NCBI GenBank assembly: GCA_008933705.1
Contig: WBUN01000010.1
Location: 1 to 64,000 of the forward strand
DNA: 64,000 nt
Direction: 5' to 3'
Source of the DNA: Hyphomicrobiaceae bacterium
GTDB taxonomy: Bacteria; Pseudomonadota; Alphaproteobacteria; Rhizobiales; Hyphomicrobiaceae
Part shown: piece after piece, positions 3,336 to 45,378 of the stretch
Layout: each line of letters starts with the position of its first letter
How positions within the stretch are numbered: position 1 is the stretch's first letter
The notes under the pieces: model-generated
What the model was told of the DNA's origin: nothing
Database searches by the model: none
What the model saw: only the letters and a program-made list of their open reading frames with translations
Made by a program: the position numbers and the translations under genes

Positions 3336-3761
3336 ATGATCCGGATCGTCACACGCATCATCCAGGCTATCTCGTTCGCAGGCGTCCTCGTCGCCGCCGG
3401 CGTCGGCACCGCCTCGGCCAACCCCGGGCCGATCGGCCTCTGGTTCGACCATACCGGTCGGGGCGCCATCGAGATCACCGACTGCGGCGGGGCCCTGTGC
3501 GGCCGCCTCGTCTGGCTGAAGGATGCCGGCCACGGGCAAGCCTGCGGCACCCAGATCCTGGGCAACGTCAAGCCGGTTGGCGCGGGCAAATGGGACGGCG
3601 GCTGGATCTACGATCCAGAGGAGAACGCCAAGTACAGCGTTGAGATCACCCCGCTCGGATCGGACCGGCTGAGAGTCATGGGCTACCTCGGCTCCAAGCT
3701 GCTGAGCGAGACCATGGTTTGGCGACGTGCGCCCGCTGATCTGAAGCGGTGCAGTGCCTGA
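3336..3761 (+). CDS. DUF2147-type secreted protein
   Basis: Signal peptide plus GLWFDHTGRGAIEITDCGGALCGRLVWLKD and C-terminal TMVWRR pattern typical of DUF2147. Confidence 0.8.
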   Translation: MIRIVTRIIQAISFAGVLVAAGVGTASANPGPIGLWFDHTGRGAIEITDCGGALCGRLVWLKDAGHGQACGTQILGNVKPVGAGKWDGGWIYDPEENAKYSVEITPLGSDRLRVMGYLGSKLLSETMVWRRAPADLKRCSA

Positions 3762-40221: not shown

Positions 40222-40602
40222 ATGGCAGAAAAGACCCGCAGCGAAACGAGTGAGGAGATGGCATCGTTCGGGTTCGACACGATGATGCAGATGCAGCGGC
40301 CCACCTTCACGGCAATGGCGGAGCTCAACGGCAGGCTTTACGAGAGCTTTGCCGCGGTCAACAAGGAGTGGACATCATTCGTTAATCGGCGCCTCAAGGA
40401 AGATCTTGCCGTGCCTCAGCAGCTTGCCGAGTGCAAGACGGTGCAGGATTTCTATCGGGTCTACGCGCAGTTCTTCCAGAATGCCTATGCAGACTATCAG
40501 GCCGAGCTCGAGCAGATGACCAAGCTTGGCCGATCCATCGCCGAAACGGCGCTCCAGCCCCTGCCGTCACGAGCTGAGGAAGCAAGCAGGACCAAGCATT
40601 AG
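40222..40602 (+). CDS. Phasin-family protein
   Basis: RLYESFAAVNKEWTSFVNRRLKEDLAVPQQLAECKTVQDFYRVYAQFFQNAYADYQAE. Confidence 0.8.
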   Translation: MAEKTRSETSEEMASFGFDTMMQMQRPTFTAMAELNGRLYESFAAVNKEWTSFVNRRLKEDLAVPQQLAECKTVQDFYRVYAQFFQNAYADYQAELEQMTKLGRSIAETALQPLPSRAEEASRTKH

Positions 40603-40859: not shown

Positions 40860-40990
40860 TGCATGAACTCCTCGGAAGCAACCGTTGGGCTTCCCCGTCA
40901 CCACTAGGGCGATGATCGAGAAATTCGCCGGTGTTTACGGCATGCGTGGAGCGCATTTCTCGATCTGAACCGCACGAGCAACACTATGAA

Positions 40991-41068
40991 CATGGTGCCC
41001 CTTTTGATTGCGAAGTTCGCTCCCGCTCCAGCAGCAGACTTCGGCAAACTTCGCAATCGGGACACTAG
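40991..41068. repeat. MITE/REP-like palindromic element A
   Basis: catGGTGCCCCttttGATTGCGAAGTTCGC ... GCAAACTTCGCAATCGGGACACTAG. Confidence 0.7.
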
Positions 41069-41168
41069 GGCAAATCCGGCGGGCGTTGAACGACACCGAG
41101 CGCTTTATGCACAGAGAGTGTGTGAGGCGGCAGGCACCGCGGCAAGGATGCTTCGCCCGGGGCCGCGG

Positions 41169-41453
41169 TCACCGCGGCGCGGGATACGAGCGCAGACCGA
41201 GCAGACAGCCGATGACGCCAAGCTCGTCGAGCGCATCGCCGGTGCCTGCGGCGCCCCGGCGTGCCGGCCTGTGCGCGTCAATCGACGGTAGGGGCTGGCT
41301 TGGCTTCTCCATCTCAGCCGCTGCGGAGATGGTGCCCCGGCATGCCAGCTCCGCAAGAGCGGCATCAACTCCAGCCCGGAGAGCAATCAACTTCTGGGCA
41401 AGGACGCTCGCATCGGCCTCCGACGCCACGGCGCAACGCACAACTTGGGTCAT
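41169..41453 (-). CDS. Small hypothetical protein
   Basis: ORF MTQVVRCAVASEADASVLAQKLIALRAGVDAALAEL... Confidence 0.4.
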   Translation of the reverse strand: MTQVVRCAVASEADASVLAQKLIALRAGVDAALAELACRGTISAAAEMEKPSQPLPSIDAHRPARRGAAGTGDALDELGVIGCLLGLRSYPAPR

Positions 41454-41498
41454 CACGCACCAACCCCCTTGATGTACCCCACAACCAACAACCCACAT

Positions 41499-41575
41499 CT
41501 AGTGTGGTGGTTCAGAAGTTCCCCTACCTTTGCGGCGAGGTCGCGAGGGAACTTCTGAACCATAAACCACACTAG
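41499..41575. repeat. MITE/REP-like palindromic element B
   Basis: CTAGTGTGGTGGTTCAGAAGTTCCC ... GGGAACTTCTGAACCATAAACCACACTAG. Confidence 0.8.
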
Positions 41576-41588
41576 AAATCATACGAAT

Positions 41589-41665
41589 CTAGTGTCCCCT
41601 TTGAATCCGAAGTTCGCAACCACGGGTGCCTCGAAGGTGGGCGAACTTCGGATTCGGGACACTAG
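41589..41665. repeat. MITE/REP-like palindromic element C
   Basis: CTAGTGTCCCCTTTGAATCCGAAGTTCGC ... GCGAACTTCGGATTCGGGACACTAG. Confidence 0.8.
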
Positions 41666-41790: not shown

Positions 41791-42789
41791 CTACTGCCAG
41801 CGCGGCATCGCGGCTTGGGGTTGCAGCTCGCTTGCGGCCTGGGCGCTCTCCGCTGCTCTTCTTGCGCTGCGCTCCCTGGTCAACTGCCGCCGGACCTCCC
41901 TCACGGCACGTTCCGCTGCGTTCTTGCCGATCCATGCCCGGACCAGCTGCCCCTGGACATCCTTGGCCAGTTGCTCTGCAGCTTCCTTGTCGCTCAGCGC
42001 CTGCGCCACCAGATTGCGCGCTTGCCTGGTCGCTCGCTCTGCCGCCTCCCGCTCCTGCAGCGCCTGGGCCAGCCGCTCTTGTGCCTCTTTGGCGGCCCGC
42101 CGCAGAGCGGCCATCGTGCCTTGCTCTCCAGCCAGCCGCTCGAGCGCACCCCCCGCGTCTTCCTCGTATGGCGCACTCGCAGCGACTCTGATCGCCAAGC
42201 CACGGTCGACCTCCTCAACCGCGCCAGGCAGGCCACCGGCCGTCACGAGCACCGCAGTCAAAGCGGCCAGAAGGCCGATCACAAGGGCCGAGCGCTTGGC
42301 TGCGACCCACACCATGCTCCGATATCCACGGCTTCTCAGGCGCGTCTCGGCCTGACGATGCCACGGATTGTAGGTGCCGAAGTTCCACAGATGGCCCTCG
42401 GGATCTCGGCATGAGTAGCTGCGCCCCCCTTTCACCTCGTCCTCGATATCGAAAACGATCTGCGCGCCGGCGGCCTTCGCCCGTGCGCAGTGGGCGTGAG
42501 CGTCTGCCACAAAGAAGTAGCACACCTGCGTTTCCGCGCCGCCGATCTCGTCCGGCTGCCTCAGGAGCTTGTCGAACGCGGACTCGCGGACCGGGCCGAT
42601 CATGACCATGGCCGTGCCGAAGGTCAGCTGGGCGAACATGATCGCGCCATTCTCACCCACGGTTATGCGATGCTTTTCGAACCCGAACGCTCTGCAAAGC
42701 CAGTTGATCGCGGCAGGTATGTCGCGATACCGCATCACCGGGACGACCGACGTTCCAATGGTCTGGGCTGTTGCTTCCGGCGTCGTCAT
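41791..42789 (-). CDS. VOC (glyoxalase/bleomycin-resistance-like) domain fused to TM helix and Ala/Glu/Arg-rich coiled coil
   Basis: VPVMRYRDIPAAINWLCRAFGFE...VFDIEDEVKGGRSYSCRDPEGHLWNFGTYNPW, then SALVIGLLAALTAVLVTAG TM and long coiled coil. Confidence 0.8.
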   Translation of the reverse strand: MTTPEATAQTIGTSVVPVMRYRDIPAAINWLCRAFGFEKHRITVGENGAIMFAQLTFGTAMVMIGPVRESAFDKLLRQPDEIGGAETQVCYFFVADAHAHCARAKAAGAQIVFDIEDEVKGGRSYSCRDPEGHLWNFGTYNPWHRQAETRLRSRGYRSMVWVAAKRSALVIGLLAALTAVLVTAGGLPGAVEEVDRGLAIRVAASAPYEEDAGGALERLAGEQGTMAALRRAAKEAQERLAQALQEREAAERATRQARNLVAQALSDKEAAEQLAKDVQGQLVRAWIGKNAAERAVREVRRQLTRERSARRAAESAQAASELQPQAAMPRWQ

Positions 42790-42886
42790 CAAGCACCTGC
42801 TCGCCAATGTGTGATCGGACCGCGAACTCTGTTCCCGTGCGGTCGCGATCACGACCGGCCATTCCCCCGCGCTCGTTGGCGACAGC

Positions 42887-44395
42887 TCAAGCTTCCCGCT
42901 TGGCCGCCACCAGACCAGCCAGGCGCTGGAAGAGCGTGGCCTTCCGTGGAGGCGCTTCGGGTTGGCGCAGCGGCACGACGGATGGCTCGGCCGGACGCAC
43001 CGTCACCGGCTCCCCGCTGGCGACAGCTTCCCCGGCTCTCGCCCAATGCTCGGGCCAGCCGACGGCCGCACTGGCGTCCGCCGCGGGCGGGCGTCGCACG
43101 AGGGCGCGGTTTTCGGTCTGCGTCGCCCTGTCCGGTGCAGGTGGAAATCGCGGCTCGAGGCTCGGTCCACGGCTCTTGGCGGCTTGACCTCGCTTGCCGC
43201 GCGCAACCGGCGGCTGTCCGGGAAGCTTCGGCACTCCCTCCTTCTTCCTGGCGGCGTCGCCTTGGGCACTGCGCCCCCGTCCGCGGCCCTTTTGGCCTGC
43301 CCTGGGCTTGCCCTGCGCGTCACGCTGGATGATCGCCTCCGTCAGCCGCCTGCCGAACAACTCGGGGCCGGAGGCGGCGCCGTCAATGCGCTGATAGCGC
43401 GGCGTCCATACGGGAGCGTCGACCTCGAGTGCAGGCTGCGGGGCGCCGGAGTTGGGCATGCCCGATGCCACGATGGACACGCGCATCTTGTCGTCGAGGC
43501 TCTCATCCAGCGTGGCGCCGACGATGATGTTGGCGTCGGGATCAACCTCCTGACGGATGCGGTTGGCCGCCTCGTCGACCTCCCACAGCGTCAGGTCGCG
43601 CCCCCCCGTGATGGACAGGAGCAGGCTCTTTGCTCCCTTGAGTGTCACGTCGTCGAGCAGTGGGTTGACGATCGCCTCCTCGGCGGCGACGATCGCACGC
43701 TGCTCGCCGGATGCCTCGCCCATCCCCATCATCGCCGCTCCCATGCCGCTCAAGACCGCCTTGACATCGGCGAGGTCGAGATTGATGAGGCCTTCCTCGA
43801 GGATCAGGTCGACCAAGGTGGCGATACCCGAGTAGAGCACCTGATCCGCCACCACGAATGCTTCGGCGAACGTCGTCCTGTCGGTGGCGACCCGAAACAG
43901 GTTCTCATTGGGTATGACCAGCAGCGTATCGACATACTGTCCGAGCGCGGCAATCCCGGCTTCGGCATTTCGCATCCGCAGCGAGCCTTCGAACTGGAAG
44001 GGCTTGGTCACAACGGCGATGGTCAGGATTCCCAGCTCCTTTGCAACGCGCGCGATCACGTAGGCAGCACCGGTCCCCGTGCCGCCGCCCATGCCCGCCG
44101 CTATGAACACCATGTGCGCGTCGGCAATCTGCGCGCTGATCTCTTCCAGCGCCTCCTCGGCGGCGGCTTCACCGATCTCCGGCTTGGATCCGGCGCCGAG
44201 CCCCTCGGTCAGATTGCTGCCGAGCTGGATGCGATGCTCCGCCTTTGAGGCCGCCAGCGCCTGCATGTCGGTGTTTGCGGCGACGAAATGGACGCCGGCG
44301 AGGCCCGCGCCAACCATGTTATTGATGGCGTTCCCACCGGCGCCGCCCACGCCGATCACGACGATGCGCGGCTTCGTGTTCAGCAGGTCGGGCAT
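42887..44395 (-). CDS. FtsZ paralogue (tubulin-like GTPase)
   Basis: [64 protein letters not shown]; no dcw-cluster neighbours. Confidence 0.93.
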
Positions 44396-45378
44396 TTCAG
44401 GCGTGCCGGTTGCGCGGGCTTCGCTTTCCGCGCCATGAGCGCATCGCACCTCATGGCAAAAGCCTGCGTCAGCTGCATGATCATCGCCGACGACTGGCCA
44501 TAGCGATGCTCAAAACTGATGCTGCCGCCGTCGTCATCGCGCCAGGTCGTCGCCTCCAGTTCTCTGCAGTACGGCAGATAGGGCTTGAGTATCTGAAATC
44601 CCGGAGCAACGCGGTCGAGAAGGTTCTCGATGGACCTGGTCTGGTAGCGATAGTGCTCGCCGCCATTCCTTTGCCGGATCTTGGATATGACTGTGCCGAC
44701 CAGCAGGTCGTCGAGCGACCGGTCTGACCGCGTCCGCCCGATCTCCCTGCGCAAATGGTCAATCGCCGCAAATGAGATCTCGTTGGGCAGGGTAGGAATT
44801 ATAAGGCCATCGGACGCCCTGATCGCCGCCTCGGAGAAGAGCGTCAAGCCGGGCGGGCAATCGATGAGCACGAAGTCGAAATCATCCAGGAGGGACCGGT
44901 AGATCTCTCCGATCATGATTGATGCGGCCTGGTAGGCCGAATGAATATCCCGGCCTGGCAGGTAGGAGGCGAGGATCTGCCGCTCGCGTCGCGGCATGTC
45001 CGGGTTGCCCGGCAGCAGGAACATCAGCTCGGATGCTTCCCTCACGCAATTGCGCGCCCTCACCGCCGTGGCGCTCAACTCCGCCCTGCCATTTCCATCC
45101 ATCAGCTTTTGCAGCTGGCAATCCAAGGTGGCATCGATCGAGATCAGGTGGTTCAGCGCCTTCCGTCCCAGCAGCGTGATGGAAGCGCTGCACTGAAAGT
45201 CACAGTCGATGATCAGAACCCGCTTCTTGAGCAGATGGCAGAGCCCCTCGGCGATCGCGATCGCAACAGTCGTCTTGCCGGTGCCACCTTTGAAATTGAT
45301 GGCCGACATGACGCTCCTTGGCAGATCGACATTGACCATTGTGCCATCCCCGTGGGGCTTGCTTGCGGGCTGGGGCAC
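44380..45378 (-). CDS. ParA/MinD-type (SIMIBI) ATPase
   Basis: Deviant Walker [41 protein letters not shown]; overlaps FtsZ paralogue start. Confidence 0.92.

What the first reader, a model, noticed from the sequence alone, without database searches (positions are those of the whole stretch)
40991..41665. Cluster of three CTAG-bounded palindromic elements with a conserved 4-nt bulge and covarying arms
Elements A (40991-41068, 78 bp), B (41499-41575, 77 bp) and C (41589-41665, 77 bp) all fold as long hairpins with CTAGTGT.../...ACACTAG ends (A's left end degenerate) and an inner GAAGTTC/GAACTTC. Arm sequences differ (GATTGCG, GAATCCG, GGTTCAG) yet pair internally, i.e. covariation. One arm always carries 4 extra nt: TTTT in A-left, CTTT in C-left, and about TTTA in B-right when read 5'->3' from the end. 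B therefore appears inverted with the same asymmetry. Such uniform size and structure suggests a MITE/REP family mobilised in trans or used as a structured RNA/DNA element.
Basis: seen in the sequence. Interest (0 to 1): 0.66.

Follow-up and report, generated by a model that had tools for sequence, protein, structure and literature searches.

The report
Double-hairpin mini-transposon of the IS630 family

Summary
They are not three single elements but two copies (D+A, B+C) of one doublet: hairpin, 13-bp AT-rich spacer, hairpin in inverted orientation, with the 3-4 nt bulge always on the arm facing the spacer. The own genome has 39 doublets and a complete relative 32, all in the same orientation. 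Arms covary almost only by Watson-Crick changes (118 double changes against about 3 one-sided), which points to a cause at DNA level rather than RNA. The spacer fits the IHF consensus (43% of distinct spacers match 8-9 of 9 fixed bases; shuffles 1.6%). Orthologous empty sites in three relatives show insertion into a pre-existing CTAG. The outer arms match, without gaps, the ends of a clade of IS630-family insertion sequences flanked by CTAG, one intact in the own genome. Best reading: an IS630-mobilised composite MITE whose inner ends are out of register, so that the doublet moves as a unit. The transposition link is sequence-based; the roles of bulge, hairpins and IHF are inferred. New variant of a known kind; a relation to Caulobacter CIR repeats could not be tested.

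The parts
40904..40978 (+). Hairpin D: degenerate H1-type hairpin, left half of the older doublet; TGAA bulge at about 40966-40969 faces the spacer
   Evidence: CM R2 42.2 bits, E 2.7e-8; resembles G000:C123:22568-22642
40979..40991 (.). 13-bp spacer of the older doublet (CAACACTATGAAC)
   Evidence: gap between D and A in the CM coordinates
40992..41068 (-). Hairpin A: H2-type hairpin, right half of the older doublet; left CTAGTGT end degenerate, TTTT bulge at 41002-41005
   Evidence: CM R2 59.7 bits on the - strand; pair I6
41499..41575 (+). Hairpin B: H1-type hairpin, left half of the intact doublet; bulge (ATAA or TAAA, alternative pairing) at about 41562-41566 on the inner arm
   Evidence: CM R2 87.1 bits; DNA fold z = -9.0
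41576..41588 (.). 13-bp AT-rich spacer AAATCATACGAAT, a weak version of the IHF-like linker
41589..41665 (-). Hairpin C: H2-type hairpin, right half of the intact doublet; CTTT bulge at 41599-41602; a GANTC site in each arm
   Evidence: CM R2 82.8 bits on the - strand; DNA fold z = -9.3
41499..41502 (.). Left CTAG, presumed left copy of the target (TA duplicated)
   Evidence: by analogy with the empty sites of other copies and outer-end statistics; the window's own empty site could not be found
41662..41665 (.). Right CTAG, presumed right copy of the target
   Evidence: as above

Best explanation
The cluster consists of two insertions of one non-autonomous transposable element, a composite MITE of the IS630 (Tc1/mariner) family. 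The element reads: outer IS630-type end, palindromic centre, inverted copy of that end carrying a 3-4 nt insertion; a 13-bp spacer resembling an IHF site; then the same in mirror image with the other IS end. An IS630-family transposase acting in trans recognises the two outer ends (GTGTCCYGATTCCGAAGTTCG-like), excises the 160-170 bp doublet and inserts it at a TA within CTAG, leaving CTAG at both ends. The inner ends carry the same motif, but shifted by 3-4 nt from the terminus, so they are probably not used and the doublet moves as one unit. IHF probably bends the spacer and brings the ends together or lets the hairpins extrude. Shown: architecture, covariation, insertion into CTAG, match to IS630 ends. 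Inferred: mobilisation in trans by that IS, silencing of the inner ends, IHF binding and its role.
For: Copies and architecture: 30 exact CTAGTGT..ACACTAG places in the own genome against 0 for the reversed control; 95 CM hairpins, 39 doublets, all +/-, 38 with a 13-nt spacer; complete relative G012 32 doublets, all +/-. All intact own-genome hairpins of this family are in doublets or cut off by a contig end. In 134 of 141 distinct hairpins the extra bases (2-6) are on the inner arm only. Insertion: empty sites with GACACGGCCTAGTTTG.GGGGTC-type sequence in G001, G002 and G005 opposite a filled own-genome site; a single CTAG at a second site in G002, G004 and G006. Outer tetranucleotides are CTAG in 110/123 (left) and 98/115 (right), with TTAG..CTAA and TTAG..CTAC pairs that fit a TA duplication in TTAA and TTAC. 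Partner: G002 carries two identical 1172-bp IS630-type elements in tandem with an end CTAGTGTCCTGATTCCGAAGT; the own genome carries one of 1177 bp, end CTAGTGTCGTGATTCTGAAGTCCG, with an intact ORF (NF033545 IS630 transposase 284.9 bits; DDE_3). IS ends of the clade score 18-21 of 22 (better end) or 19-21 against the outer-arm consensus in G000, G002, G003, G014, G073, G193, G311 and G487, where TA-starting background 23-mers of the window reach 16; outer arms score mostly 18-22 and inner arms 8-15 in the same frame. Spacer: 43% of 95 distinct spacers match IHF at 8-9 of 9 fixed bases, shuffles 1.6%; GC 28% against 63%. Literature: IS630 prefers TA in 5'-CTAG-3' (title of Tenzen and Ohtsubo 1991, cited in PMC2170065).
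Against: DDE_3 (IS630) was not found in carriers G008, G012, G019, G025, G027 and G030, so in these genomes the copies are relics or another enzyme moves them. Only 11 of 103 genomes of the family hold a close relative of the own transposase. No transposition was observed; no autonomous element with complete hairpins at its ends was found: the IS copies carry the outer-arm sequence but not the inverted inner copy. The IS left and right ends are less alike than the doublet arms (own IS left end scores only 14 of 22). IHF binding is a consensus match only, and the window's own spacer matches it poorly. CTAG at both ends does not by itself decide between a 2-bp and a 4-bp duplication.
Confidence: 0.84

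Rival explanations
1. A REP/BIME-like element moved by a REP-associated Y1 tyrosine transposase (RAYT) acting on single-stranded hairpins.
For: Inverted hairpin pairs, a tetranucleotide at the hairpin foot and an IHF-like spacer resemble E. coli BIME/RIB elements (architecture).
Against: No Y1_Tnp match in own genome G000 nor in carriers G002, G006, G010, G011, G012, G016-G019; insertion with CTAG at both ends and matching IS630 ends are not RAYT features. REPs are 20-40 bp with GTAG or CGTC tags (PMC3733652).
Confidence: 0.04
2. A structured RNA element (terminator, 3'-UTR stabiliser or sRNA) kept by selection on the transcript.
For: Very stable hairpins, pairs kept through compensatory changes, several copies at gene ends.
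Against: 118 double changes against about 3 one-sided (G.U) among 746 cells: RNA helices normally tolerate G.U. No Rfam match at gathering threshold in the window. Near-identical copies at unrelated sites with empty orthologous sites require mobility.
Confidence: 0.05
3. Each single 75-79 bp hairpin is the mobile MITE and doublets arise by insertion of one next to another.
For: Every hairpin has CTAG at both ends and palindromic arms that look like terminal inverted repeats; tandem doublets share a CTAG (L121 and G012:C2:894925-895253).
Against: All 71 doublets in two genomes have the same orientation and nearly all a 13-nt spacer; H1 and H2 types are distinct; no intact solo hairpin in the own genome apart from contig ends; empty sites lack the whole doublet.
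Confidence: 0.05
4. The perfect covariation is not selected but produced by template switching that corrects quasipalindromes, on top of an ordinary MITE. (This competes with a functional reading of the hairpins, not with the MITE reading.)
For: Watson-Crick-only changes in both arms are what arm-to-arm correction would give; sequence in the loops varies freely.
Against: The bulge on the inner arm is not corrected away, and the outer arms keep IS-end sequence, so correction cannot be the only force.
Confidence: 0.35

Closest known systems
IS630-derived MITEs (e.g. RUP of Streptococcus pneumoniae with IS630-Spn1; Nezha of cyanobacteria)
   Same: Short, non-coding, TA at the termini, ends matching an IS630-family element, many copies (RUP and IS630-Spn1: PMC2229807).
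   Different: RUP is a single inverted-repeat element of 107 bp; this one has two separate hairpins, each an inverted duplication of one IS end, around an IHF-like spacer, with a bulge on each inner arm.
CIR elements of Caulobacter and Brucella (Chen and Shapiro 2003)
   Same: Alphaproteobacterial, intergenic, two stem-loop arms joined by a linker, TA at termini, GANTC sites (as described in PMC2229807). Here 53 of 69 H2 hairpins carry GANTC in the stem.
   Different: CIR are about 110 bp with GANTC at a terminal loop; these are 160-170 bp with GANTC in the stem. The original paper is not held and no CIR sequence could be compared, so identity or relationship is open.
Correia elements (Neisseria)
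   Same: TA-flanked MITE; the 155-bp form carries an IHF site shown to bind IHF (PMC2229807; PMC10969869).
   Different: One terminal inverted-repeat pair, not two hairpins; different host class; sequences not compared here.
BIME/RIB elements (E. coli REP pairs with IHF site)
   Same: Two inverted imperfect palindromes flanking an IHF site (own knowledge; RIBs of Boccard and Prentki 1993 are cited in PMC5082802).
   Different: Much shorter REPs, RAYT-associated, no target CTAG, no IS630-like ends; Y1 transposase absent in carriers.
Br-REP1 / Br-REP2 and GTAG/CGTC REPs of Bradyrhizobium and Rhodopseudomonas
   Same: Palindromic repeats of the same bacterial group (PMC5082802; PMC3733652).
   Different: Consensus CCGGAATCTCGAGATTCCGG and short tagged REPs; no sequence match to the arms seen here.

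Membership tests
MITE of the IS630 family | Insertion at TA (preferably CTAG) with TA duplicated | tested here: met
   Empty sites with a single CTAG in G001, G002, G005 (and G002, G004, G006 at a second site), CTAG at both ends when filled; TTAG..CTAA and TTAG..CTAC variants favour a 2-bp TA duplication, few cases.
MITE of the IS630 family | Terminal sequences matching those of an IS630-family element | tested here: met
   IS ends score 18-21/22 against outer arms in eight genomes, background 16 or less; outer-arm scores mostly 18-22.
MITE of the IS630 family | Transposase of that family encoded in the same genome | tested here: inconclusive
   Present in G000, G002 and others; DDE_3 not found in carriers G008, G012, G019, G025, G027, G030.
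MITE of the IS630 family | No coding capacity, short, dispersed, near-identical copies | tested here: met
   160-170 bp, 39 doublets in the own genome; many identical copies at unrelated flanks.
MITE of the IS630 family | Transposition in trans by the IS630 transposase | not testable with these tools
   Needs a transposition assay.
REP/BIME with RAYT | Y1 tyrosine transposase (PF01797) in carrier genomes | tested here: not met
   No match in G000, G002, G006, G010-G012, G016-G019.
REP/BIME with RAYT | Inverted palindrome pair, IHF-type spacer | tested here: met
CIR elements | Two stem-loop arms with linker and TA termini | tested here: met
   Architecture; CIR description from PMC2229807.
CIR elements | About 110 bp, GANTC at the terminal loop of one arm | tested here: not met
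   160-170 bp; GANTC in the stem of 53/69 H2 hairpins.
CIR elements | Sequence similarity to CIR1-CIR4 | not testable with these tools
   Paper not held; no CIR sequence available.
Structured RNA family (Rfam) | Match to a curated RNA family | tested here: not met
   No match in the window at gathering threshold.

The most novel reading that the evidence does not exclude
The doublet is a composite transposable element of a new, self-regulating architecture: each IS630 end is duplicated in inverted orientation to form a hairpin, the inner copy is thrown out of register by a 3-4 nt insertion so that the transposase can only use the outer ends, and IHF bending of the spacer pairs the two ends; the arms co-evolve with the transposase while staying palindromic because a DNA hairpin or cruciform is part of the recognised substrate.
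Probability: 0.3. Interest if true: 0.68.

Novelty: new variant of a known kind. Interest (0 to 1): 0.52.

Why it matters
A widespread, apparently uncharacterised repeat family of Alphaproteobacteria (Afipia, Nitrobacter, Bradyrhizobium, Hyphomicrobium, Caulobacter, Phenylobacterium and many uncultured lineages) gains a mobile unit, a target site and a candidate transposase. With up to 100 or more CTAG-bounded hairpins per genome it breaks assemblies, lands on TAG stop codons, and could alter gene ends and nucleoid-protein binding. Its Watson-Crick-only covariation makes it a natural test case for DNA-level hairpin function against template-switch correction. It may also give a transposition mechanism for the long-known two-armed CIR repeats, if these prove to be related.

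Tried and rejected
RAYT (Y1) mobilisation: absent in carriers. Recurrent neighbouring gene as enzyme: clustering of 792 ORFs from 115 loci found only common housekeeping families; genes between clustered doublets in G012 are ordinary. An autonomous element of the form hairpin-gene-hairpin: none seen; the +..- pairs with larger gaps in the own genome (C54, C19) are doublets split by other repeats. Empty site for the window's own doublets: intergenic flanks have no ortholog in 34 relatives. First CM structure was off by one column in the inner stem; corrected. Pattern search hits L077 and L097 (Lysobacter) are chance matches, as are several of the class-wide hits with GC-rich spacers.

Full report
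WHAT IS THERE. B and C fold far better than shuffled sequence (z about -9, 0 of 200 shuffles); A is degenerate at its left end. CTAGTGT occurs in the 64-kb window only at A, B and C. A covariance model built from 30 hairpins, nearly all from other genomes (R2), finds B, C and A and also a fourth hairpin D at 40904-40978, and nothing else in the window. Orientation and spacing show two doublets: D(+) 13 nt A(-), and B(+) 13 nt C(-).

THE UNIT IS A DOUBLET. In the own genome (5.3 Mb, 145 contigs) the exact pattern CTAGTGT-N50..80-ACACTAG occurs at 30 places, the reversed control at none; one of the 30 (C45) belongs to another repeat family. The model gives about 95 hairpins that form 39 doublets, all in the orientation +/-, 38 with exactly 13 nt between them. 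In a near-complete relative (G012, 3 contigs) 67 hairpins form 32 doublets, again all +/-. Among 60 relatives within the order of the window's genome, 19 matched the hairpin pattern, all in the same family; class-wide the junction is patchy (9 of 385 genomes, some by chance), with real doublets in distant genomes.

ANATOMY. In 134 of 141 distinct hairpins the extra 2-6 (mostly 3-4) nt are only on the arm facing the spacer. The 10-bp outer stem starts with invariant CTAGTGT; the 15-bp inner stem holds a conserved GAAGTTCG core and a variable 6-bp part in which up to four Watson-Crick pair types occur at one position. On alignment A2, 99.3% of 746 cells pair, 14 of 25 pairs show changes on both sides, 118 cells are double changes and only about 3 are one-sided; shuffles give 37 double changes, slid structures 2 to 23. 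The near-absence of G.U argues for a DNA-level cause (hairpin or cruciform, or arm-to-arm correction) rather than RNA. The two hairpins of a doublet are of different types (H1 CTAGTGTG.., H2 CTAGTGTCC..); 53 of 69 H2 hairpins carry GANTC at the start of the inner stem, 3 of 72 H1.

SPACER. The 95 distinct spacers are 28% GC in loci of 63% GC, and 43% match 8-9 of the 9 fixed positions of WATCAANNNNTTR, against 1.6% of shuffled spacers, mostly in the register that fills the spacer exactly. IHF binding is inferred from this. The window's own B-C spacer is a poor match.

MOBILITY. At the own-genome insertion near C77:19,000, relatives G001, G002 and G005 have an uninterrupted sequence with one CTAG (G002: GACACGGCCTAGTTTGCGGGGTC); at C9:11,400 relatives G002, G004 and G006 have one CTAG that holds the TAG stop codon. 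So the doublet enters an existing CTAG and leaves CTAG on both sides. In loci found through the inner junction, which leaves the outer ends free to vary, CTAG is at 110/123 left and 98/115 right ends; two copies have both outer bases changed (TTAG..CTAA, TTAG..CTAC), as expected if TA is duplicated within TTAA or TTAC. The window's own empty site could not be found because the flanks have no ortholog.

THE LIKELY ENZYME. Y1 (RAYT) transposases are absent from most carriers tested. A search for IS630-type DDE_3 proteins led to two identical 1172-bp elements in tandem in G002 whose ends read CTAGTGTCCTGATTCCGAAGT.. and CTAGTGTCCTGATCGATAAAT.., and to a 1177-bp element in the own genome, G000:C23, with one end CTAGTGTCGTGATTCTGAAGTCCGTCTCATTCTT and an intact transposase frame that passes the NCBIfam IS630 model. 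Relatives of this transposase have ends whose better match scores 18-21 of 22 against the doublet's outer-arm consensus without a gap (G000, G002, G003, G014, G073, G193, G311, G487); TA-starting 23-mers of the window background reach 16. Four copies in G487 and the two inspected in G192 all lie between C[TA] and [TA]G. In the same frame the outer arms of the doublets score mostly 18-22 and the inner arms 8-15, because of the bulge. IS630 itself is reported to prefer TA in 5'-CTAG-3' (Tenzen and Ohtsubo 1991, title as cited in PMC2170065), and the IS630-family ISY100 needs only its transposase and duplicates TA (PMC2170065).

HOW IT MOST LIKELY WORKS. The transposase binds the two outer ends, excises the doublet and inserts it at CTAG. 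The inner ends have the recognition motif 3-4 bp too far from the terminus and are probably dead, which would explain why solo hairpins are not seen intact and why the bulge is always inside. IHF bending of the spacer would bring the ends together. The first sentence rests on sequence matches and empty sites; the other two are inference. A template-switch correction of quasipalindromes may account for the perfect arms and is not excluded.

LIMITS. Several carriers lack any DDE_3 match (G008, G012, G019, G025, G027, G030); there the copies may be old, or another enzyme serves. No element was found that has both the transposase and complete hairpins. The closest described repeats, the CIR elements of Caulobacter and Brucella, share the two-armed plan and TA termini but differ in length and in the place of GANTC by the description available (PMC2229807); their sequences could not be compared. 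Literature searches found no description of this doublet, but the library lacks most subscription papers and ISfinder was not available.

Noticed in passing
G000:C45:10152-10238 (L034) and G000:C54 about 3350-3510 (L216): A second, different repeat with CTAGTGTTGTGACTC ends and a GGTCGGGACAAGCCCGACC core; possibly another element with the same target preference. In C54 it (or a relative) splits a doublet.
   Followed up: partly
G000:C84:190656-190727 (L230) and G006:C345:6029-6100: Hybrid single hairpins made of the outer half of H1 and the outer half of H2: deletion derivatives that lost the inner arms and spacer.
   Followed up: no
L121 1-328; G012:C2:894925-895253; G002:C84 (L243/L249): Tandem doublets, and a tandem of the IS630 element itself, that share a single CTAG at the junction, as expected from insertion into the CTAG of an earlier copy.
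   Followed up: partly
own-genome copies L001, L003, L013: Several insertions sit exactly on TAG stop codons (CTAG), so the element re-creates the stop codon of the gene it enters.
   Followed up: partly
L132, L153: Short-form doublets (66-nt and about 50-nt hairpins) with the same ends and spacer length.
   Followed up: no
window 42887-45378: An FtsZ homolog (520 aa, TIGR00065 387 bits) next to a ParA-like ATPase on the - strand, with a glyoxalase-domain gene (41791-42852) beside them; a phasin gene lies at 40222-40602.
   Followed up: no
old copies, e.g. G000:C99, C137, C84 (L218, L219, L230): Old copies have CCAG or CTGG in place of CTAG at their ends, i.e. decay by transitions in the TA step.
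   Followed up: no
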